From: Nitrospira sp.
GTDB taxonomy: Bacteria > Nitrospirota > Nitrospiria > Nitrospirales > Nitrospiraceae
Reading direction: 5' to 3'
DNA: 31,116 bases
Assembly: GCA_020697375.1 (NCBI GenBank)
Contig: JAJFBJ010000044.1
Span: forward strand, 1-31,116
Shown here: one piece after another, positions 21,364-31,116 of the stretch
How positions within the stretch are numbered: position 1 is the first letter of the stretch
Layout: each line of letters begins with the position of its first letter
Translations under genes and position numbers: made by a program
Notes under the pieces: generated by a model
What the model was told of the DNA's origin: nothing
The model's database searches: none
What the model saw: only the letters and a program-made list of their open reading frames with translations

Positions 21364-23364
21364 ATGAGCCTCCCGAAAACCTTCTACATCACCACGCCCA
21401 TTTACTACGTCAATGACGTGCCCCACATCGGCCATGCCTATACGACCGTGGCCGCCGATGTACTCGCGCGCTACTGGCGATTGCGCGGGCGCGAGGTGTT
21501 CTTTTTGACGGGTCTGGACGAGCATGGACAGAAAGTGCAACAGGCCGCCGCGAAAGCCGGGATCGATCCGCAAACCCATTGCGACCGGCTCGCGCCGCAG
21601 TTCATAAACCTCTGGAAACGGTTGAATATCTCCAATGACGCCTTCATTAGAACCACCGATAGCCGGCATCAATCAGTGGTTCAACGATATCTTCAGCAGT
21701 TATTCGATAACAACCTGATTTATAAAGCAGATTACACTGGGTGGTACTGCACGTTCGATGAACGGTTCTGGACGGAGAAAGATGTAGCCGATGGGCTGTG
21801 CCCGGACTGCAAGCGACCGATCGAGCGCCTCAGCGAGCACAATTATTTTTTCAAGATGGGCCGGTATCAGGACCAGCTGATCGACCACATCCGTACCCAC
21901 GAAGACTTCATTCGCCCCGCATCCAGACGCAATGAAGTCCTGGGATTTCTTCAGACGCAGAAACTGGGAGACCTATCGATCTCGCGACCAAAATCCAGGC
22001 TCGGCTGGGGCATCGAATTGCCGTTCGACAAAGACTATGTGACTTACGTCTGGTTCGATGCGCTCGTGAACTATATCTCGGCTCTCCAGTACCTGCCGGA
22101 GAAACCATCCGTCGATCGGTTCTGGCCCGCCGATGTCCATCTGGTCGGCAAGGACATCCTCACGACCCACGCCGTCTATTGGTCCACGATGTTGATGGCG
22201 CTGGATTTGCCGCTTCCGCAAACGATCTTCGCGCACGGCTGGTGGACGGTCGATGGCGAGAAGATGTCCAAGAGTCGCGGCAATGTCGTCGATCCCAACA
22301 AGATGGTCGATGAATTCGACGCAGACGCCTTCCGCTACTTCCTGTTGCGCGAGGTGCCGTTTGGGCAGGACGGAGATTTTTCGCGCGAGGCCGTGATCGG
22401 CCGTATCAACAGCGACCTGGCGAACGGCCTGGGCAACCTGCTAAGCCGGACCGTGACGATGATCGAGCGATATTGCGGGGGCAAGATTCCACCGTCTCAC
22501 TCGGGATTGGAGGAGCATGAAAACAGCCTGGAGAACGCAGTCAGGGAATCGGCACAACAGATCCAAGAATTGGTTTCAAGCTTCCAATTCAATCGCGTTT
22601 TAGAATCCATTTGGAATGTCATTCAGACCGCCGACCAATACTTTGAATCTCAGCAACCCTGGAAACTTGCCAAGGAACAAGCTCACAGAACCAGACTTGA
22701 GCAGGTGCTTTATCGAGTTGCAGAAACATTACGCCAACTCGCCTATCATCTTTCCCCTTTTATGCCCAACACTGCCGAGGAAATGATGCGACAGCTCGGC
22801 CTTACCGCGGCGGACCTGAAGAGAGACGAAGTTCTGACATGGGGACAACTTCTTCCTGGCACGCCAGTGAACAAGCGCGCGTCCCTGTTCCCTCGAATCG
22901 ATACGACCAGATCACAAGGAGCCAAAAACGTGAGCGACTCACCTGCTTCCTCGCAACCGACTACCGTCGCACCGACCGCAGCCACCACTGCGCCACAGAG
23001 CCAGGCTGCTGCTGCAGCCGCCCCTGCCCCTGCAGCCCCATCCCAGATTACCATCGATGAGTTCATGAGGGTCCAGCTCAAGACGGCAAAGGTTTTGACG
23101 GCGGAACGCGTGCCGAAATCAGAGAAGCTGCTGAAGCTTCAAGTCAGCCTGGGAAGCGAACAACGGCAGATTGTCGCCGGCATCGGCAAAAAATACGAAC
23201 CGGACGCCTTGATCGGAAAAACCATCGTCATCGTGGCGAACCTCAAGCCGGCCAAGCTGATGGGCATTGAATCGCAAGGCATGGTCCTCGCCGCAGGCGA
23301 CAGCGAGGTGCATGGGCTCGTGACCATGCTGGAAGCGGTAGAGCCCGGCACCAAAGTGAAGTGA
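21364..23364 (+). CDS. metG: Methionine-tRNA ligase with C-terminal tRNA-binding domain
   Basis: Charges tRNA(Met) with methionine. The 666-residue protein has class I signatures HIGH (21-24) and KMSKS (300-304), the catalytic GLDEHGQKVQ, and VWFDALVNYISAL. The connective peptide has a partial zinc knuckle: Cys129, Cys146 and Cys149 are present, but the second position of the first CxxC is Asp (CTFD). The anticodon-binding helical domain runs to about 515. A low-complexity Ala/Pro/Thr/Gln linker covers about 520-560, followed by an EMAPII-like tRNA-binding OB-fold (about 562-666, FMRVQLKTAKVLTAERV, GIGKKYEPDALIGKTIVIV, SQGMVLAAGD). Such domains dimerise MetRS and raise tRNA affinity. Confidence 0.97.
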   Translation: MSLPKTFYITTPIYYVNDVPHIGHAYTTVAADVLARYWRLRGREVFFLTGLDEHGQKVQQAAAKAGIDPQTHCDRLAPQFINLWKRLNISNDAFIRTTDSRHQSVVQRYLQQLFDNNLIYKADYTGWYCTFDERFWTEKDVADGLCPDCKRPIERLSEHNYFFKMGRYQDQLIDHIRTHEDFIRPASRRNEVLGFLQTQKLGDLSISRPKSRLGWGIELPFDKDYVTYVWFDALVNYISALQYLPEKPSVDRFWPADVHLVGKDILTTHAVYWSTMLMALDLPLPQTIFAHGWWTVDGEKMSKSRGNVVDPNKMVDEFDADAFRYFLLREVPFGQDGDFSREAVIGRINSDLANGLGNLLSRTVTMIERYCGGKIPPSHSGLEEHENSLENAVRESAQQIQELVSSFQFNRVLESIWNVIQTADQYFESQQPWKLAKEQAHRTRLEQVLYRVAETLRQLAYHLSPFMPNTAEEMMRQLGLTAADLKRDEVLTWGQLLPGTPVNKRASLFPRIDTTRSQGAKNVSDSPASSQPTTVAPTAATTAPQSQAAAAAAPAPAAPSQITIDEFMRVQLKTAKVLTAERVPKSEKLLKLQVSLGSEQRQIVAGIGKKYEPDALIGKTIVIVANLKPAKLMGIESQGMVLAAGDSEVHGLVTMLEAVEPGTKVK

Positions 23365-24329: not shown

Positions 24330-25271
24330 ATGGTGTCCCATACTTACCATGAACTCCGCTCGCGGCTGAGAATTGCCCTCGCCTGCAACGCGATCATCAT
24401 CATCGCCGAGTTTGTCGGAGGTTTTCTCACTAACAGCATCGGCTTGGTCGGCGACGCGGGACACAATCTCGTCGATCAGGGCTCTCTCTTCCTGGCGTTG
24501 TATGCCCACATTCTGACGGCCAGGCCCGCGACGGACAGCCGGACCTTCGGCTACCACAGGGCCGGCATCGTGGCCGCCTTTTTGAATTCGTTCATCCTGC
24601 TGCTGACCGCCGTCGGCATCACGCTCGTCAGCTTCAAACGCCTCATGAACCCCGTCCCGGTTCCCGGCGGATGGGTGATGCTGATCGCGCTGGTCAGTTT
24701 TGTCGCGAATCTCGCGATCGCCCTTCTGCTCCAGCATGGCGCGAAAGACGACCTTAATATCCGTAGCGCCTTCTGGCATATGCTGACCGATGCCTGGGTG
24801 TCTCTCGGAGTCGTGGTCAGTGGAGGAATGATCCTGTTGACCGGATGGGCCGTTTTCGATCCGCTGGTCAGCCTTTTGGTCGTCCTGGCGATCGGCAGGG
24901 GCGCCTGGCCACTCTTTAAGGAATCGCTTGAAGTATTATTGGAATCGACGCCGCCCGGCGTGAGCCCCGCGCACGTCGCCGCGACCATCGAATCCATCCC
25001 AGGAGTGAAGAACGTCCACGACCTGCACATTTGGGCTGTCGAACCACGTCTCATCATGATGACGACTCATGTGCAAGTGGACGGCGATGACGAGGCACTG
25101 ACCAGCGACCTTCTCCAGACGATCCGGAACCGGATCACGACAGATTTCGGCATCAAGCACCTCACGATTCAGCTGGAAACGGAATGTTGCCACCCGGAAG
25201 CCGTCCATTGCGATCTCAATCATCTGGCCGGCCGGCATCCACAGCCGGAAATCCTGCATAGTCACCACTAG
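24330..25271 (+). CDS. Cation diffusion facilitator (zinc-type efflux) transporter
   Basis: A 313-residue inner-membrane metal/proton antiporter of the CDF family. Six transmembrane segments lie in the first about 200 residues. The metal site is visible as His45/Asp49 in TM2 (GDAGHNLVD) and His150/Asp154 in TM5 (HMLTD), the two-His/two-Asp set usual for zinc transporters. The cytosolic ferredoxin-like domain follows (SIPGVKNVHDLHIWAVEP, VQVDGDDE). The last about 30 residues are rich in His and Cys (C286, C287, H288, H293, C294, H298, H303, H310, H312, H313), a likely extra metal-binding tail. ATG 24330 has only a purine-rich GAAAAAAG upstream; GTG 24333 is an alternative. Confidence 0.93.
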   Translation: MVSHTYHELRSRLRIALACNAIIIIAEFVGGFLTNSIGLVGDAGHNLVDQGSLFLALYAHILTARPATDSRTFGYHRAGIVAAFLNSFILLLTAVGITLVSFKRLMNPVPVPGGWVMLIALVSFVANLAIALLLQHGAKDDLNIRSAFWHMLTDAWVSLGVVVSGGMILLTGWAVFDPLVSLLVVLAIGRGAWPLFKESLEVLLESTPPGVSPAHVAATIESIPGVKNVHDLHIWAVEPRLIMMTTHVQVDGDDEALTSDLLQTIRNRITTDFGIKHLTIQLETECCHPEAVHCDLNHLAGRHPQPEILHSHH

Positions 25272-25357
25272 CAGGGTGGTAAAAAAGGCCGGTTTCGTTC
25301 TCGGATGTTTACCCCTCTGCTAGCCCTCTCTCGGTTCAAGCGGCTACAATAGCCGTG

Positions 25358-26317
25358 ATGGCACAAACTCTTCCTGTCCCCTTCTACATCCTCTGCGGGT
25401 CGCTCGGCGCCGGCAAGACCACCCTGCTCATGCGCCTCCTCGAATTCTGGAACAGCCAGGGCCACAAGGTCGGCGTGCTGATGAACGAGGCGGGAGCGGT
25501 GAGCATCGACGGCCCGCGCGCCGGAACGCTCGCCGAGCAGGTCCTTAACCTGGCCGGCGGCTGCATCTGTTGCGATACGAAAGACGACCTGGCCTGGAGC
25601 ATCGCGCAGCTCGTGCAGGACTATGAATCCACCCTGATCGTCTTGGAATGTTCCGGCATGGCCGATCCGGCGGAAGTCGTCGATGCGGTGACGGATGCAT
25701 ACGTCTCACGGATGGCGAAGCTCGAACGGATCTTGGCGATGTTGCATCCCGTGCCCCTGCCCGATACCGGCATGGCAGAACTTGTGACCCGCAACGCCAT
25801 TCGGTATGCGGACGATCTGATCCTCAATAAGCGGGATCTGTACATACCCGGTCACTGGGAGCAGTTTCGTGAGACCATTACGCGCCACAACCCATACGGG
25901 CGGATCTGGGAAACCAACCATGCCAGGCTGGATATCGCCGCCCTGCTGGCCGCCCCCGTGACGCGATCCGTCCCGACCAACGTCTCGTTCGGGAAACCGC
26001 CCGCTGCGGACGACAGGCACGACGCCCGCGATCCTCATCACCCGATGGTGACCACCGTGCCACTACCGAAGCCGCTGGATCGCAAAAAGTTCATGGAATG
26101 GACGAAGTCGTTACCGGAGGGCATGGAACGGGCGAAGGGCTTCTTTCGCTTTGAGCAGGAACCGGAGCTGATGGAGTTTCAATTTTTTCCGCCGCGCACC
26201 AGCACGGTCGCACCGGTTATGCTGCTCGACGAACCGGACCATGTCCTGGTGTTGATCGGACGAGCCTACGACCAGGAAGGCTGTCGCGCCTCCCTCCTCG
26301 CCTGCCGTGCTTCATGA
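25358..26317 (+). CDS. COG0523/CobW-family GTP-binding metallochaperone
   Basis: A 319-residue G3E-family GTPase. It has P-loop GSLGAGKT (14-21), the metal-binding GCICC motif with Cys69, Cys71 and Cys72 (NLAGGCICCDTKDDL), the LECSGMADP segment, and NKRD (157-160). A His/Asp-rich loop (DDRHDARDPHHP, about 218-229) separates it from a CobW C-terminal domain (AKGFFRFEQEPELMEFQFF). Members deliver zinc, cobalt or other metals to target proteins; the specific metal cannot be read here. ATG 25358 follows an in-frame GTG directly and has no strong ribosome site. It lies 86 bases after the CDF gene, so the two may share metal homeostasis. It ends five bases from the convergent PAP2 gene. Confidence 0.88.
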   Translation: MAQTLPVPFYILCGSLGAGKTTLLMRLLEFWNSQGHKVGVLMNEAGAVSIDGPRAGTLAEQVLNLAGGCICCDTKDDLAWSIAQLVQDYESTLIVLECSGMADPAEVVDAVTDAYVSRMAKLERILAMLHPVPLPDTGMAELVTRNAIRYADDLILNKRDLYIPGHWEQFRETITRHNPYGRIWETNHARLDIAALLAAPVTRSVPTNVSFGKPPAADDRHDARDPHHPMVTTVPLPKPLDRKKFMEWTKSLPEGMERAKGFFRFEQEPELMEFQFFPPRTSTVAPVMLLDEPDHVLVLIGRAYDQEGCRASLLACRAS

Positions 26318-26322
26318 CATTG

Positions 26323-26910
26323 TCAGGAGATCGAACCGGCTGAAGGCTGCCGCACGCCGGCGGGAGCCATGCGCTCAGCAGGCGGCCGAAATCGCGACCA
26401 ACGGGTGAGCCGCCAGGCCACACCCGCCCCGATCATCCCACCCACCACCCACCCGCCGATCACATCCGTCATGTAATGGGCGCCGATGTAAACTCGGGAG
26501 AGGCCGATCGCCAGCACCAGCGGCCAGCTGATCCAGCCGGACCGTGGATACAGGACTTGAAAGAAGGCCGCAGCCGCCGCTGTGTTGGCGGCGTGGTTGG
26601 AAGGAAATGCAAATGCCCCGCCGCAGCCCAGCAATTGATGCACGTCCGCAAGCGTGACGCAGGGCCGCGGGCGCTGCACCAGGCCCTTGAGCTGTGTTCC
26701 CATCGCATCCGCGACGCCGATGACAGCGGCCAGCATCGCCGAGCCGATCAGGAACTCCCGCCGGTTGTTCCACAGCCAATAGCAGGCGGCGAGCATCACG
26801 GGATAGAACAGATTGCCCGGCTTGGCGAGCTCCACCATGATCCAGTCAAGGGTGGCCGACCGGCCGGCCATGCCGTTGATCGCGTGAAACAGGCTCTCGT
26901 CCCAGTACAT
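26323..26910 (-). CDS. PAP2-family membrane phosphatase
   Basis: A 195-residue integral membrane lipid-phosphatase-like protein. All three PAP2 motifs are intact: KGLVQRPRP (K75, R80, P81), PSNH (103-106), and SRVYIGAHYMTD (S138, R139, H145, D149). Several hydrophobic helices surround them (FYPVMLAACYWLW, AMLAAVIGVADAMG, LVLAIGLSRV, VVGGMIGAGVAW). The size and motifs fit undecaprenyl-diphosphatase (BcrC-like) or a phosphatidylglycerophosphate/lipid A phosphatase; sequence alone cannot choose. ATG 26910 (MYWDESLFHAING) is preferred to a TTG at 26946. It is transcribed alone towards the CobW gene and away from the phospholipase D gene. Confidence 0.92.
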   Translation of the reverse strand: MYWDESLFHAINGMAGRSATLDWIMVELAKPGNLFYPVMLAACYWLWNNRREFLIGSAMLAAVIGVADAMGTQLKGLVQRPRPCVTLADVHQLLGCGGAFAFPSNHAANTAAAAAFFQVLYPRSGWISWPLVLAIGLSRVYIGAHYMTDVIGGWVVGGMIGAGVAWRLTRWSRFRPPAERMAPAGVRQPSAGSIS

Positions 26911-27319
26911 GGGAAGGACGATAAGGCCTCGCGCGCCATTCGTCAATCGTCAACGCCGATGGATCCATTTGCGGACGCGGCGGGAATAATTTTCCAGCGC
27001 CTGCTTTACCATCCTGCTTCACGCGACCATTCCGCATGACACGTATTTCGACTGACTCTGCGGTTGACAGCCTGTGATCAGCGTTGTACCTTTCGGCACC
27101 TTCATGCGATGGTCTCCCCCTATCGCAATGTCACGCAGAGGTCTCATGCGGATGACAGGAAACATCCGATCTTCACCACATCATGTTCATGGAAGTGACA
27201 GGTCTGTCCGCGCAGGGCAAAGATGCCGATCGCGGCATGCGGAGGAGACAAGTCTCTCAGTGCGGGCATCAGCGTGAGTTGCGGCACAGCATAACGTTGC
27301 TTCCTGGAAAACGGCGGAC
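26911..27319. other. Intergenic region upstream of the phospholipase D / DUF6603 pair
   Basis: About 409 bases between divergent genes. It holds a candidate plus-strand promoter (27064-27092) and no coding sequence that looks real; a 67-codon plus-strand frame at 27074 has no family features or ribosome site. Two short repeats of TGACAGG occur (about 27153 and 27197). If the promoter is used, the leader is about 220 bases, long enough for regulation, but no known RNA motif was recognised. Confidence 0.45.
27064..27092 (+). promoter_or_regulatory. Candidate promoter of the phospholipase D / DUF6603 unit
   Basis: A perfect TTGACA (27064-27069) followed by a 17-base spacer and TACCTT (27087-27092). 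The -35 box matches 6/6 but the -10 only 3/6. It is the only convincing element in the 409-base gap. Confidence 0.35.
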
Positions 27320-29425
27320 ATGGCCAATACAGGTGTGCGAGGGCGAGTGGTCTATGCCGGAACGACGACCGGCATCGAGGGGTTGGAGATCGTGGCCGTC
27401 GATCTCGATCCTTTTTTCTCCGAAGATATTTTGAACGATCCCCCTGCCAAGACAGACTCCAACGGACATTTCAACATTTCGTATTCCGCTGGCTCCTTCG
27501 ATGATTGGATACCGGGGAGAAACCCCGACATCATCGTGCGCGTCTATGCCCCCGGCGGGCGCCTGATCCACGAAACCTCCGAGCAGAGCAATGTCAGCGA
27601 CAGCCTGCTGGCCATGGCCACCATGGAAATTCATCGAGCCAACGTCGAAGGATGGCTCTCGACCAACGCAACGCTCAACCCGACCAACCCCGCCCTTCGT
27701 CCTGATGGTACGCCCCTCACCTGGACCAAAGGCAATCATGTCGAACTCCTGCAGGACGGCGTCACGCTCTTCCCGGCACTCACCGATGCGGTCAACCAGG
27801 CCCAGCAGTCGATCAGACTCATGAATATGAACTTCTGGTTGAGCGACAACCTCATGACCAAATTCACTCCCGATCCTCCGCCCGACAATGTGCCGGTACA
27901 GGGAGTGCGAATCCACGAAAGTCTCAAGGCCAGATCGAAGATTGTGGCCACCACTAATATTCTCGTTCAAGACGTGCCGTTCTTCGGTCGCATCTTCGGC
28001 GCCGATACCGACGGACTGGTCAAAGACTTCTTTAAGGAAGACAACGTCGCCGTTCGCGCGCTGCCTATTTTTCTCTCCCTGCTCAATCTTCCCTCATTCA
28101 TGCATGCGAAGGCCGTTGTGCTCGACGGGACGACTGCGTTCGTGCTCGGCTCGACCATGTCGCAATCCTACTTCGGCGCCCACGATCACCAGATCCGCGA
28201 TCCCCGGCATGGGGGTTCGCTCGTCCATGACATGAGCCTGAAGGTCCAGGGTCCCGCGGTCGAGCATATCGACCGAACGTTCACCACCCTCTGGAACGCG
28301 GCTGATTCCGACGCCTCCGCCCTTTCACCTTCAACCGGCCAATCGCCTGCGACGCAGGATGACCTCGGCCTTCAAATCGTCCGCACGCTTCCCGGAGGGA
28401 CGATCACGGCCTCGCACACCGGAGGTTCCGCCCTTCCCCATGGAGAAACGAGCGCGTTGGAGGCTTATCAGCGCGCGATTGCCCTGGCCCAACAATATAT
28501 TTATCTCGAAGACCAGTACTTTACCGCGCCGGAAGTCTTCGATGCCCTGCTGCGCCGGATGAAGCAGGCGCCCGACCTGGAACTCATTCTGGTGCTGAAT
28601 TGCAATCCGGATGTGTCGGGCTATCCCGAAAAGCAGGTGCAGCTCCTCGAACAGTTCCGATCCGACCTCGCCAAGACACTGGGAGCGGCTCAAGCCGAGA
28701 AACGCCTGGGCCTTTTCACCATCTGGAGTTGCGATGAGCAGGCAACGCCCTATGAGATCATGCCGATCTATGTGCACAGCAAGACCGCCATCATCGACGA
28801 TGTATGGGCGACGATCGGAAGCGCCAATCTCGACGGGGCATCCTTGAACCACATTCAACTAGCCACGATCGTACAACAGAAACTGGCTGATGCGATCGAG
28901 GACGGCAAGTGGTGGAAACGGCTCTTGCTCGGCCTTACGATCTTTGCGCTGACGCCGCTGGTCATGGCCATGGTCCTGGCCATGAAAATCGGGATCACCA
29001 GACCTTCCCAACATGCCAACCCTGGACAGTCGCGACAACCGATCCGCTCATCGGAACTCAATGTCGTCATCTGCGAACAGAATCCACAACTCTCCATCCC
29101 GAACAAGACGGTGAAGCAGTTCCGGGAAGCTCTGTGGGGGGAGCATCTCGGCTTGGGGACATCCCTTCCACCGATTGGAAACGGATGGGTCGACCTGTGG
29201 CAGCGCCGTGCCAGGGAGAAACTGGCCAGTCTGCAGTCCGACCCTTCGAAACCTGTGGGCCAGCGGAGCAAGCATCCGGCCAAGATCCTTGCATGGACCG
29301 CGGAGACGGATCCGGAACCATATCTGCGGGCATGCCTTGGCGCCGAACTGCGCGACCGAAAAATCCGTCTCCGTTCGAAAGCCGATAAGTTCAATTTCAA
29401 AACCGGGACGTGGGAACGCAGGTAA
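27320..29425 (+). CDS. Phospholipase D-like protein with transthyretin-like N-domain and internal membrane segment
   Basis: A 701-residue HKD-type phosphodiesterase, probably acting on phospholipids. Residues about 5-95 look like a transthyretin/carboxypeptidase-regulatory-like beta fold (VRGRVVYAGTTTGIEGLEI, TDSNGHFNISY, DIIVRVYAPGGRLIHE). Two intact HKD motifs follow: H262-A-K264-xxxx-D269 (HAKAVVLD, then LGSTMSQSYFG) and H486-S-K488-xxxx-D493 (HSKTAIIDD, then IGSANLDGASLNH). Typical family elements YIYLEDQYF (393-401) and FREALWGEHLGLG (601-613) are also present. Between the second HKD and the expected SELNVVICE strand (578-586) lies about 60 residues with a hydrophobic stretch (RLLLGLTIFALTPLVMAMVL), so the enzyme is probably membrane-attached. 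There is no N-terminal signal peptide. ATG 27320 has a weak ribosome site (GGCGGA close by). It ends eight bases before the DUF6603-like gene. Confidence 0.88.
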   Translation: MANTGVRGRVVYAGTTTGIEGLEIVAVDLDPFFSEDILNDPPAKTDSNGHFNISYSAGSFDDWIPGRNPDIIVRVYAPGGRLIHETSEQSNVSDSLLAMATMEIHRANVEGWLSTNATLNPTNPALRPDGTPLTWTKGNHVELLQDGVTLFPALTDAVNQAQQSIRLMNMNFWLSDNLMTKFTPDPPPDNVPVQGVRIHESLKARSKIVATTNILVQDVPFFGRIFGADTDGLVKDFFKEDNVAVRALPIFLSLLNLPSFMHAKAVVLDGTTAFVLGSTMSQSYFGAHDHQIRDPRHGGSLVHDMSLKVQGPAVEHIDRTFTTLWNAADSDASALSPSTGQSPATQDDLGLQIVRTLPGGTITASHTGGSALPHGETSALEAYQRAIALAQQYIYLEDQYFTAPEVFDALLRRMKQAPDLELILVLNCNPDVSGYPEKQVQLLEQFRSDLAKTLGAAQAEKRLGLFTIWSCDEQATPYEIMPIYVHSKTAIIDDVWATIGSANLDGASLNHIQLATIVQQKLADAIEDGKWWKRLLLGLTIFALTPLVMAMVLAMKIGITRPSQHANPGQSRQPIRSSELNVVICEQNPQLSIPNKTVKQFREALWGEHLGLGTSLPPIGNGWVDLWQRRAREKLASLQSDPSKPVGQRSKHPAKILAWTAETDPEPYLRACLGAELRDRKIRLRSKADKFNFKTGTWERR

Positions 29426-29433
29426 CCATCGAC

Positions 29434-31116
29434 ATGGCCAATACCGTCACCACACTTGCAATTGCCCTGGGACAACTTCTCTCGACATTGAAGGAAGTGG
29501 CCGGAGGGGCAGCGCAGACGAAGACCTTCATCAACTTTCTTGGCTGGAGATTGCCGCCCGGGCTCGATGACATCGGACTGGCCGCGATCGACCTTTCGGA
29601 ATTTCTAGAGACACTCCGCGTCGTCGTGGACTCTTCCGACGTGGAATGGAACGATGAGCTGATCATGGCCGCCCGTATCGGGAATCTCGCCCTGGCCATG
29701 AGCCGGCTCGTTCAGCAAATCCAGCAACTCGCCGAAACAATTCCCTCGCGACTCGACCAACAAGAGGACTATATCGCGCGTACGAATATCCACAAGGAAC
29801 TTCCAAGACGAATATTCGATCTGCTGGTCGCGAGCTACCTGTCCAACAAGTCTTATCTGGTTTCCTCGCTGCTCCACCTGGTGAATATTCTCGAATTCAA
29901 ACACTTCGAGGCCGACGAGGCGAACTATCAGGTCGAGCACATCCGCGCTATCGTGCACTACGATCACCTCCATGCGTTCCTGTCCGATCCTTCCCGCCAC
30001 ATGCAACAGACATACGGGTGGGGCACGGCGGCATTTGCCGGCCAAGAGCTGATAGGTCGCATCGACCAGGTCCTTCGAGCAGTCGGGGCTTCAGTGATCC
30101 TCCGGCTCATGGATCAGCGTGCGGAAGAGGTGCTGCTCGGTCGTCCTCTCGCCGCAATCGAGACCGATGCCATGCCGCAACTGTTGATCACGCTCTATGA
30201 GGAACTGGGCGCCTTCGCCGGAGTCAAGGCCGGGCTATCTGTTTTTGCCCTTCGTCCCAGCTCGCCCGGAGGCTCCGATGGAGGCATCGGCCTCCTCCCG
30301 TTCGCACGAGGTCACGGGGAAGGCGACATTCCGCTCCACCTGTTCAAGGATACGGTGATCGAATTTTCGGCCCATGCCGATCTGCTCAAGCGTATCGCGT
30401 TGCTCATCCGTCCCGACCAACCGCCGCGCCTCAAGACGGCACACAGCTTGGGCGAATTGGCCGACGGCCGATTTGCGATCGGTATCCGCCACGGCAGGCC
30501 GGAAACGGCGCCTCAGACATTGGTGACGCTCCCGGGCGGTTCGAGCCTGAGTTTCCAGCAATTCAGACTGACAGGCGGTATGGAAAAGAGGGAGGGCGTC
30601 TCTCCGGAAAGTTTCTTGGAGTTGGGATTGCTCGGCTGCCGCGTTGAGTATTCGCTGGGCGAGGCGGATGCATTCCTGAGCGAGAGCATTTCAAGGGATT
30701 CGGTCGCAGTGCCCTTCGACCTGCGTCTCGGATGGAGCAGTGCCAAGGGGATCTATTTCCATGGTAGCGGAGGCCTGCATGCGACGCTGCCCTTGCATCT
30801 CGCCCTGGGACCGTTGCTGCTGGAATCGCTCTATCTCGCTCTCGACACGAAGGAAACAGGATTCGACGTCGAAACGAGCACGAGCGGTCGCCTGAGCCTT
30901 GGCCCATTGACCGTGACGGTGGAGCGAATAGGGTTGTCCGTCAATGTTTCTTTCCAAGGGGGCAACTTAGGTCTCTTCGGGCTCTCACCACGCTTCAAGC
31001 CCCCGACGGGCCTCGGGCTGGCGATCGCGGCGCCGGGGGTCGTGGGCGGGGGCTTTCTGGGCTTCGATCCCCAGCGGGCCGACTACAGCGGCATCCTCCA
31101 ACTGGAGCTGGCCGAG
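29434..31116 (+). CDS. DUF6603-like large protein (partial, N-terminal 561 residues)
   Basis: The frame stays open from ATG 29434 to the window edge and is not complete. Residues 1-265 appear mostly helical (LRVVVDSSDVEWNDELIMAA, LVQQIQQLAETI, VSSLLHLVNILEFKHFEA). From about 266 the sequence turns beta-rich with alternating hydrophobics and many Gly/Leu strands. The stretch FKPPTGLGLAI ... GGGFLGFDPQRADYSG (522-552) is the kind of motif that marks DUF6603 proteins, which are long and of unknown function. No signal peptide is visible. It starts eight bases after the phospholipase D gene, and the 14 bases around both start codons (GACATGGCCAATAC) are identical. Cotranscription and joint function are inferred; the DUF6603 label rests on remembered motif style, not on a search. 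Confidence 0.75.
   Translation, partial: MANTVTTLAIALGQLLSTLKEVAGGAAQTKTFINFLGWRLPPGLDDIGLAAIDLSEFLETLRVVVDSSDVEWNDELIMAARIGNLALAMSRLVQQIQQLAETIPSRLDQQEDYIARTNIHKELPRRIFDLLVASYLSNKSYLVSSLLHLVNILEFKHFEADEANYQVEHIRAIVHYDHLHAFLSDPSRHMQQTYGWGTAAFAGQELIGRIDQVLRAVGASVILRLMDQRAEEVLLGRPLAAIETDAMPQLLITLYEELGAFAGVKAGLSVFALRPSSPGGSDGGIGLLPFARGHGEGDIPLHLFKDTVIEFSAHADLLKRIALLIRPDQPPRLKTAHSLGELADGRFAIGIRHGRPETAPQTLVTLPGGSSLSFQQFRLTGGMEKREGVSPESFLELGLLGCRVEYSLGEADAFLSESISRDSVAVPFDLRLGWSSAKGIYFHGSGGLHATLPLHLALGPLLLESLYLALDTKETGFDVETSTSGRLSLGPLTVTVERIGLSVNVSFQGGNLGLFGLSPRFKPPTGLGLAIAAPGVVGGGFLGFDPQRADYSGILQLELAE

What the first reader, a model, noticed from the sequence alone, without database searches (positions are those of the whole stretch)
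27320..31116. Phospholipase D plus DUF6603-like protein: candidate undescribed membrane/lipid-acting two-gene system
A catalytically complete HKD phospholipase D is followed after eight bases by a large protein of unknown function with a helical N-half and a Gly/Leu beta-rich part. The unit stands alone after a 409-base gap, with its own candidate promoter, next to housekeeping genes. Neither protein has a signal peptide, so both may act at the inner face of the membrane, or be exported or injected by another route. Possible roles include lipid remodelling, lipid transfer along a beta-groove, or effector/antiphage activity. All roles are inference; only the gene pair and motifs are seen.
Basis: partly seen in the sequence, partly recalled or inferred. 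Interest (0 to 1): 0.75.

Follow-up and report, generated by a model that had tools for sequence, protein, structure and literature searches.

The report
Swappable enzyme cassette feeding unknown machine
The gene pair is the front end of an undescribed multi-gene system, found in bacteria and archaea, in which a constant set of very large proteins appears to be loaded with exchangeable enzymes (lipases, phosphatases, proteases, a cell-wall amidase) through an adaptor protein whose front half changes together with the enzyme.

Summary
The gene pair is real: a phospholipase D with both HKD motifs (27320-29425), 8 bases, then a DUF6603 protein (29434 to the contig end). The window matches Nitrospira. 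It is not a two-gene lipid system.

In relatives the pair starts a longer cluster: enzyme, DUF6603, then three large conserved proteins without Pfam match in N. defluvii (about 870, 1770 and 580 aa). The enzyme slot varies: phospholipase D, PhoD-like, metallo-beta-lactamase fold, M64, subtilisin, trypsin-like, Amidase_2. Thirteen Nitrospirota genomes carry two stacked enzyme-DUF6603 units.

In stacked units the DUF6603 halves differ sharply: the front is about 20-30% identical, the back 91-100%, as 1.5-2.6 kb direct repeats. The front half's nearest neighbour has the same enzyme class in 42 of 42 cases; the back half follows the genome (25 of 26). The window's own gene looks mosaic near the same point.

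Best reading: DUF6603 is a chimeric adaptor. Its front half holds a particular enzyme, its back half docks to the constant core, and enzyme plus front half move as a cassette by recombination in the back half. What the core does, and where, is not shown; leaderless delivery of enzymes to other cells is my favoured guess.

The parts
27320..29425 (+). payload gene: phospholipase D, 701 aa, two HKD motifs
28103..28126 (+). HKD motif 1 (HAKAVVLD, residues 262-269)
28775..28798 (+). HKD motif 2 (HSKTAIID, residues 486-493)
28919..28975 (+). hydrophobic, membrane-like stretch (residues 534-552); similar stretch starting at 537-549 in the L006, L013 and L015 PLDs, elsewhere in the three more distant PLDs
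29426..29433 (+). 8-base gap between the two genes
29434..30984 (+). DUF6603 gene, front half (residues 1-517): inferred enzyme-specific adaptor
   Evidence: residues 1-250 / 251-430 are 60 / 52% identical to L006, 41-46% to N. defluvii-type copies with PLD, 14-23% to copies with other enzymes; residues 431-517 do not discriminate (55% to L006, 54-61% to N. defluvii-type PLD copies)
30985..31116 (+). DUF6603 gene, first 44 residues of the constant back half (residues 518-561), cut by the contig end
   Evidence: 82-89% identical to N. defluvii-type PLD copies, 66-84% to copies with other enzymes, 68% to L006; repeat start in tandem relatives
26911..27319 (.). 409-base intergenic region before the cluster; no + strand sigma-70-like site
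26323..26946 (-). neighbouring gene (reads as PAP2-like; name recalled); marks the chromosomal site shared with L008, L009, L011, L014
   Evidence: 74-80% identical in those loci
24330..26317 (+). two neighbouring genes of the same site (read as cation efflux 24330-25271 and CobW-like GTPase 25355-26317; names recalled)
   Evidence: 85-91% identical in L008, L009, L014; the second also in L011 (89%), where the first was not matched

Best explanation
The pair is one payload cassette of a modular system: enzyme (here PLD), then DUF6603 adaptor, then a constant core (C871, a coiled-coil protein in Nitrospira, C1772, C578). Shown by comparison: the enzyme slot is variable; DUF6603 is a chimera whose front half (to about residue 520 in most stacked pairs read, about 415 in one) covaries with the enzyme class and whose back half is kept uniform within a genome; stacked cassettes lead into one C871; direct repeats of the back half flank the second cassette. 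Inferred: the front half binds its own enzyme, the back half docks to the core, and cassettes are exchanged or stacked by homologous recombination in the back half. In the window, an L006-like PLD plus front half sits on an N. defluvii-like back half at a site shared with other Nitrospira. More speculative (about 0.45): the core is a leaderless particle or machine that carries the enzymes out of the cell against distantly related organisms.
For: Slot survey. Gene order across phyla. C871 in 28 of 295 Nitrospirota genomes, all 28 among the 30 with DUF6603. Front-half nearest neighbour has the same enzyme class in 42 of 42, against a permutation mean of 11 and maximum of 24 in 2000; back half 26 of 42, or 4 of 42 once neighbours of 50% or more are excluded, front half still 42 of 42. 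In 13 stacked pairs the back half's nearest neighbour is the partner in the same genome in 25 of 26 and never of the same enzyme class (0 of 26). Direct repeats of 1549-2558 bp, 87-100% identical, in the same 13 genomes, including the complete N. defluvii chromosome. In G151 the repeat runs into the start of C871 and leaves a C871 fragment behind the upstream Amidase_2 cassette. Window gene itself mosaic. A shared domain of about 120 aa in subtilisin, trypsin-like and other slot proteins: 19 hits in 5886 ORFs, all in slot proteins (7 of them the model's own seeds); the front halves behind the three non-subtilisin cases find each other and subtilisin partners first, across phyla. Stop and start codons overlap by 4 bases in 16 of 61 enzyme/DUF6603 pairs (start codons chosen mechanically).
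Against: I found no report of binding, secretion or activity. Covariation of front half and enzyme could come from linkage alone. In 8 of 45 family-seeded copies the slot holds no recognised hydrolase. The slot labels rest on profiles I built from slot proteins; Pfam confirmed only representatives, and three PhoD-like and one M64 fell under cut-off. All 13 stacked cases are Nitrospirota. The boundary is not identical in all pairs (about 415 in G151; softer in G096), and one back half (G096, L107) is closer to another genome than to its partner. The window mosaic rests on 44 residues of back half, and L006 rather than the window could be the recombinant. DUF6603 of the MBL-partnered type lacks a convincing C871 in the stretches read (only a 12-bit match in L082). 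No component that I checked has a clear leader, so export is conjecture. The DUF6603 model has pTM 0.48.
Confidence: 0.65

Rival explanations
1. Linkage without binding: enzyme and front half travel together only because they are neighbours on the recombining segment; the back half is homogenised by gene conversion because it is long and repeated. DUF6603 is then a structural subunit with a fast-evolving front half and no adaptor role.
For: The recombination signal alone requires nothing more.
Against: Gene pairing and front-half similarity persist across phyla, where linkage should long have decayed: tail-bearing partners in the Gemmatirosa (L004) and Paraburkholderia (L005) plasmids and Nitrospirota (L068) find each other first. 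The four-base overlap of many enzyme/DUF6603 pairs suggests co-assembly.
Confidence: 0.2
2. Intracellular conflict system: the large core proteins sense an invader and release a hydrolase effector inside the cell, as proposed for other multi-effector systems (recalled).
For: No clear leader peptides on the proteins checked; PADLOC matches of slot subtilisins to a subtilase model (1e-27 to 2e-27) and, more weakly, to IetS, and of the window PLD to DrmC (8e-6).
Against: In N. defluvii the core proteins C871, C1772 and C578 gave no Pfam, NCBIfam, PADLOC or PHROG match, hence no NTPase or sensor domain. A cell-wall amidase and a peptidoglycan-binding domain in the slot make more sense outside the cytoplasm. 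The FG-GAP and lamin-tail domains in core-position proteins of Streptomyces and haloarchaea are often extracellular (the last point recalled).
Confidence: 0.2
3. Payloads are loaded on a contractile injection machine encoded elsewhere in the genome, and the cluster is only a loading complex for it.
For: A sheath family (PF04984) is found elsewhere in 9 of 12 cluster-bearing genomes, 7 over cut-off. One slot subtilisin (L008) has a head-decoration-like stretch (phrog_20658, 6e-10) and another (L014) a marginal tail-fibre match (0.03).
Against: Three of the 12 (G041, G149, G151) show no sheath match (incomplete genomes possible). No spike, tube or baseplate family was matched among the core genes tested. 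PF04984 also occurs in prophages (recalled).
Confidence: 0.1
4. One reading: a two-gene membrane or lipid-acting unit, with lipid remodelling or transfer along the beta-groove of DUF6603.
For: PLD chemistry; strongly two-faced beta strands in the DUF6603 back half (charged 3% on one face, 31% on the other); distant resemblance to outer-membrane barrels and apolipoprotein B.
Against: PLD is the partner in only 11 of 45 family-seeded copies, and the fixed partners of DUF6603 are the core proteins.
Confidence: 0.05

Closest known systems
T6SS effector loading by adaptors (Tap/Tec DUF4123, Eag DUF1795, DUF2169) onto VgrG/PAAR (PMC10433429, passages seen)
   Same: an adaptor gene couples a particular effector to a constant machine
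   Different: no spike, tube, sheath or T6SS adaptor family matched in the cluster; here the adaptor is a chimera of about 1100 aa with a uniform docking half
Polymorphic toxin systems and Rhs/CDI cassette displacement (PMC3482391, passages; PMC3967940, search listing and start of abstract); V. cholerae T6SS effector displacement (PMC5361080, abstract, part of the introduction and section list)
   Same: variable payloads exchanged by recombination in a constant part; displaced remnants left behind (here the C871 fragment in G151)
   Different: those swap a C-terminal toxin domain or an effector-immunity pair; here a separate upstream enzyme gene plus the N-terminal half of the next gene is swapped, and in several stacks there is no room for an immunity gene
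PVC/eCIS toxins (PMC3482391, passages)
   Same: that paper notes that many PVC-delivered toxins lack adjacent immunity genes, perhaps because they act on distant organisms, and lists Nitrospirae and Euryarchaeota among the carriers
   Different: the phage-tail/base-plate proteins, VgrG and CDC48-like ATPase listed there as signature neighbours were not matched in the cluster
Eukaryotic-type PLD1/PLD2 (PDB 6ohr, 6u8z, 6ohm)
   Same: HKD chemistry; nearest solved structures by sequence
   Different: E-values only 4e-5 to 2e-4 with short matches; different domain build

Membership tests
HKD phospholipase D superfamily | two HxKx4D motifs in PLDc folds | tested here: met
   residues 262 and 486; PLDc_2 and PLDc over cut-off
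Cardiolipin synthase ClsB / DISARM DrmC | score over the curated NCBIfam cut-off | tested here: not met
   61.3 of 281 bits and 27.8 of 133 bits
DUF6603 (PF20248) | score over Pfam cut-off | tested here: met
   58.3 bits, cut-off 27, on the first 95 of 502 model positions; the full-length L006 relative matches positions 1-501
Polymorphic toxin system | variable toxin domain at the C-terminus of a trafficking protein | tested here: not met
   payload is a separate gene; the variable half of DUF6603 is N-terminal
Polymorphic toxin system | adjacent immunity gene | tested here: inconclusive
   no room in six stacks (10-14 bases before the next cassette in L012, L014, L071, L073, L098, L101); 194-283 bases in L008, L013, G096; in G151 other genes of unknown role lie between the cassettes; genes outside the clusters not examined systematically
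T6SS / eCIS | structural genes (sheath, tube, spike, baseplate) in the cluster | tested here: not met
   no such Pfam, NCBIfam or PHROG match among the N. defluvii core genes tested; a sheath elsewhere in 9 of 12 genomes
Tc (ABC) toxin | TcA/TcB/TcC domain families | tested here: inconclusive
   no Pfam match in C871, C1772 or C578 of N. defluvii; folds of C1772 and C578 not predicted
Outer-membrane beta-barrel | closed barrel, signal peptide, outer membrane | tested here: inconclusive
Lipid-transfer groove proteins (AsmA/TamB/VPS13-like) | open beta-groove with lipid | tested here: inconclusive
   amphipathic strands; no such entry among the rows listed, which excludes nothing

The most novel reading that the evidence does not exclude
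A previously unrecognised class of protein machine in bacteria and haloarchaea, built from DUF6603, C871, C1772 and C578. It is loaded with interchangeable hydrolases by a chimeric adaptor and re-armed by recombination between 1.7-kb direct repeats; it carries leaderless enzymes to other cells without immunity genes.
Probability: 0.4. Interest if true: 0.92.

Novelty: categorically new. Interest (0 to 1): 0.8.

Why it matters
DUF6603 and C871 are large families (at least 1177 and 3962 relatives passed E 1e-3 among about 8000 scored candidates each), and I found no function in print for DUF6603. The comparison gives DUF6603 a testable job, payload adaptor, and turns an annotated unknown into a marker for finding payload enzymes by position. 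The recombination pattern is sharp enough to predict which enzyme belongs to which adaptor and where a new one would be inserted. If the core is a delivery machine, it is one that the family libraries used here do not name, in nitrifiers, actinobacteria and haloarchaea.

Tried and rejected

Dropped before counting: two DUF6603 copies whose slot gene was cut by the edge of the first fetch (L063, L065) were replaced by their refetch (L107, L108). Sequences under 890 aa or under 400 bits were left out of the half-by-half comparison (54 kept, of which 42 have a classmate). The L112 slot was counted as unknown because the DUF6603 ORF was over-extended, and as PhoD after (704.8 bits). L114 and L115 were fetched for family hits, but their DUF6603 fell under 20 bits with my profile and they are in no count.

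Bias: loci L006-L022 were found with front-half patterns, so their 17 of 17 PLD partners are not an independent frequency. The family-seeded counts cover loci L059-L115 only: hits already held as L013, L014, L015, L018, L020 and L021, and some weak or cut hits, were not fetched again and are not in them. My slot profiles were built from slot proteins.

Not-in-print claim rests on searches for DUF6603 (0 papers), PF20248 (0 papers) and word combinations, in open-licence PMC only.

Full report
WHAT IS THERE. The window carries a 701-aa phospholipase D at 27320-29425 and, eight bases on, a DUF6603 protein from 29434 that is cut at the contig end after 561 aa. Both HKD motifs are intact. The three nearest upstream genes are 74-91% identical to Nitrospira genes that also lie upstream of a PLD-DUF6603 cluster in L008, L009, L011 and L014 (distances to the PLD gene vary, 1.4-5.5 kb there). 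A further gene (21364-23364) matches L014 at only 53% over 286 residues. The window is therefore a Nitrospira-like contig. No whole genome is held for it. The proposed promoter was not found.

IT IS PART OF A LARGER CLUSTER. A scan seeded with an alignment of window relatives (patterns from the DUF6603 front half) gave 17 loci; all 17 have a PLD gene directly upstream. Reading on from DUF6603 in N. defluvii shows DUF6603, C871 (871 aa), a coiled-coil protein (269 aa), C1772 (1772 aa) and C578 (578 aa); L006 has the same order. C871, C1772 and C578 of N. defluvii have no Pfam or NCBIfam match at E 0.1, none in PHROGs at 0.1 and none in PADLOC at 0.01. DUF6603 followed by C871 and C1772 homologues is also found in Anaerolineae L015, Paraburkholderia L005, haloarchaea L001/L003, Gemmatirosa L004, actinobacterial L089-L092, L085 (phylum of the Anaerolineae genome) and L112 (phylum of the Pyrinomonadaceae genome); C578 was matched in L005, L085, L090 and L112. 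In the haloarchaea the C578-position protein begins with a similar RQWQ motif (by eye). In Nitrospirota, DUF6603 was found in 30 of 295 genomes and C871 in 28 of 295; all 28 are among the 30. Family counts in other sampled phyla: 9 of 296 (that of Amycolatopsis), 9 of 301 (that of the Anaerolineae genome), 5 of 247 (that of the Pyrinomonadaceae genome), 2 of 145 (that of the Verrucomicrobiota genome). Among 45 well-scoring family-seeded copies, C871 follows directly in 29, another enzyme cassette in 8, and nothing or an unlabelled ORF in 8, mostly at contig ends.

THE SLOT BEFORE DUF6603 IS VARIABLE. Pfam on slot proteins gave PLD, PhoD-like, M64 (IgA peptidase), S8 subtilisin, trypsin-like, metallo-beta-lactamase fold, PG_binding_1, DUF4056 and WD40. 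The Amidase_2 model matches the 764-aa frame at G151:C1:1223051-1223584 (30.2 bits, cut-off 26), which is the slot gene of that cassette. With profiles built here, 45 well-scoring DUF6603 copies from family-seeded genome loci had PhoD-like 14, PLD 11, S8 7, M64 4, Amidase_2 1; the other 8 were DUF4056, WD40, a tail-bearing protein of unidentified class, a 970-aa unknown and 4 unknown or absent. Counting also the weakly scoring copies (58 in all), MBL-fold partners add 7 and PLD 1. Three PhoD-like and one M64 representative are under the Pfam cut-off. Catalytic patterns are present in the two S8 and three M64 proteins checked; in PhoD they were not established.

DUF6603 IS A CHIMERA. I compared 54 DUF6603 proteins in two parts. 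Between cassettes of one genome with different enzymes, the front part (reference residues 12-430) is 19-32% identical. Of the five stacked pairs read position by position, four stay mostly under 40% up to about residue 520 and then jump, three of them to about 100% and the G096 pair to 70-100%; in G151 the jump is at about residue 415. On residues 530-1090 the 13 pairs are 91-100% identical. At DNA level these are direct repeats of 1549-2558 bp, 87-100% identical, in 13 genomes. They include the complete N. defluvii chromosome (1772 bp, 99.6%) and megabase contigs (G147, G143, G151), so short-read artefact is unlikely. The front part's nearest neighbour has the same enzyme class in 42 of 42 proteins with a classmate, also after excluding neighbours of 50% or more. 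Shuffled labels give a mean of 11 and at most 24 in 2000 runs. The back part gives 26 of 42, and 4 of 42 after the same exclusion. For residues 530-1090 the nearest neighbour is the partner in the same genome in 25 of 26 and shares the enzyme class in 0 of 26; for the front part it shares the class in 24 of 26, the other two having no classmate. The front part goes with the enzyme, the back part with the genome.

TRACES OF EXCHANGE. In G151 the repeat (2558 bp, 99.6%) runs on into C871, and the upstream Amidase_2 cassette ends in an ORF of 105 codons that starts like C871 and diverges where the repeat ends: the remnant expected if a new cassette was inserted by recombination in the shared part. 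The window shows a similar discordance at its own site. Residues 1-430 of its DUF6603 resemble L006 (60% and 52%) more than the N. defluvii type (41-46%); residues 431-517 do not discriminate; residues 518-561 are 82-89% identical to N. defluvii-type PLD copies and 68% to L006. Its PLD is 67% identical to that of L006 but 38% to that of L014, whose three matching flanking genes are 80-91% identical to the window's. So an L006-type cassette sits on a local back half; which of the two lineages received it is open, and only 44 back-half residues are available. The window contig ends 44 residues into the repeated half. Of 13 DUF6603 genes cut by the end of their sequence, 5 end within 60 residues after position 518 (interval chosen after seeing the data). 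This is what an assembler does at a repeat, so the window organism probably has a second cassette (inference).

A SHARED DOCKING DOMAIN. A domain of about 120 aa recurs, usually at the C-terminus, in S8, trypsin-like and other slot proteins: 19 of 5886 ORFs, all of them in the gene or run of genes before DUF6603; seven are the model's own seeds and two are refetched duplicates. A model built without the S8 sequences still finds the S8 proteins at 4e-18 to 2e-14. The DUF6603 front halves behind L004, L005 and L068 have as their six best hits only partners of such tail-bearing proteins, from three phyla. PLD, PhoD, M64 and MBL partners were not found with this model. This points to recognition of the tail by the front half, but is not proof.

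MECHANISM. Most likely DUF6603 is the adaptor between an interchangeable hydrolase and a constant core. Shown: modular exchange and the chimeric structure. Inferred: physical binding. Guessed: that the core is a leaderless device for delivering the enzymes to other organisms. The last rests on the make-up of the payload set (lipase, phosphatase, proteases, cell-wall amidase), on PG-binding, FG-GAP and lamin-tail domains in relatives, and on the lack of room for immunity genes in six stacks, which PMC3482391 interprets for PVC toxins as action on distant organisms (passage). The leader check is a hydrophobicity scan only; the L014 subtilisin and the Halalkalicoccus C1772 homologue have borderline stretches near residues 36-38. 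An intracellular conflict system remains possible.

LITERATURE. No held paper contains DUF6603 or PF20248. T6SS adaptors (PMC10433429, passages) are the nearest functional analogy; cassette displacement in V. cholerae T6SS (PMC5361080, abstract) and in Rhs/polymorphic toxins (PMC3967940, search listing; PMC3482391, passages) the nearest evolutionary one. The machinery of these systems was not matched in the cluster, so I do not file it under them. I call it categorically new because the core families are unnamed in the libraries used, although the logic of swapping payloads is known.

Noticed in passing
L079-L084, L086 (phyla of the Anaerolineae and Amycolatopsis genomes): A divergent DUF6603 type of 1430-1532 aa, preceded by a metallo-beta-lactamase-fold gene in 7 of 7 and without a convincing C871: probably a sister system with its own core.
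   Followed up: partly
L088, L113: Giant proteins (3233 and 3364 aa) with a DUF6603-like stretch in the last third; the N-terminal two thirds are unexplained.
   Followed up: no
L023:11076-12230 (N. defluvii chromosome): A Fic-domain gene about 290 bases after C578; not seen after C578 in L006's genome; others not examined systematically.
   Followed up: no
L065/L108 (G151): Regions of about 430 bp upstream of both cassettes are 75% identical (possible shared promoter region), and a 278-aa protein that reads as peptidoglycan-binding (by eye) precedes the PhoD cassette.
   Followed up: partly
L094, L095 (Halalkalicoccus, Salinigranum plasmids): C578-position proteins carry a C-terminal lamin tail domain, and the Halalkalicoccus C1772 homologue (3124 aa) carries decapeptide repeats.
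   Followed up: partly
window 28919-28975: All 7 PLDs checked have a membrane-like hydrophobic stretch, but at different positions in different lineages.
   Followed up: no
G096 (L063/L064/L107): One genome holds a stacked M64/unknown cluster and, about 0.7 Mb away, a second cluster with a DUF4056 slot gene and its own C871, C1772 and C578.
   Followed up: no
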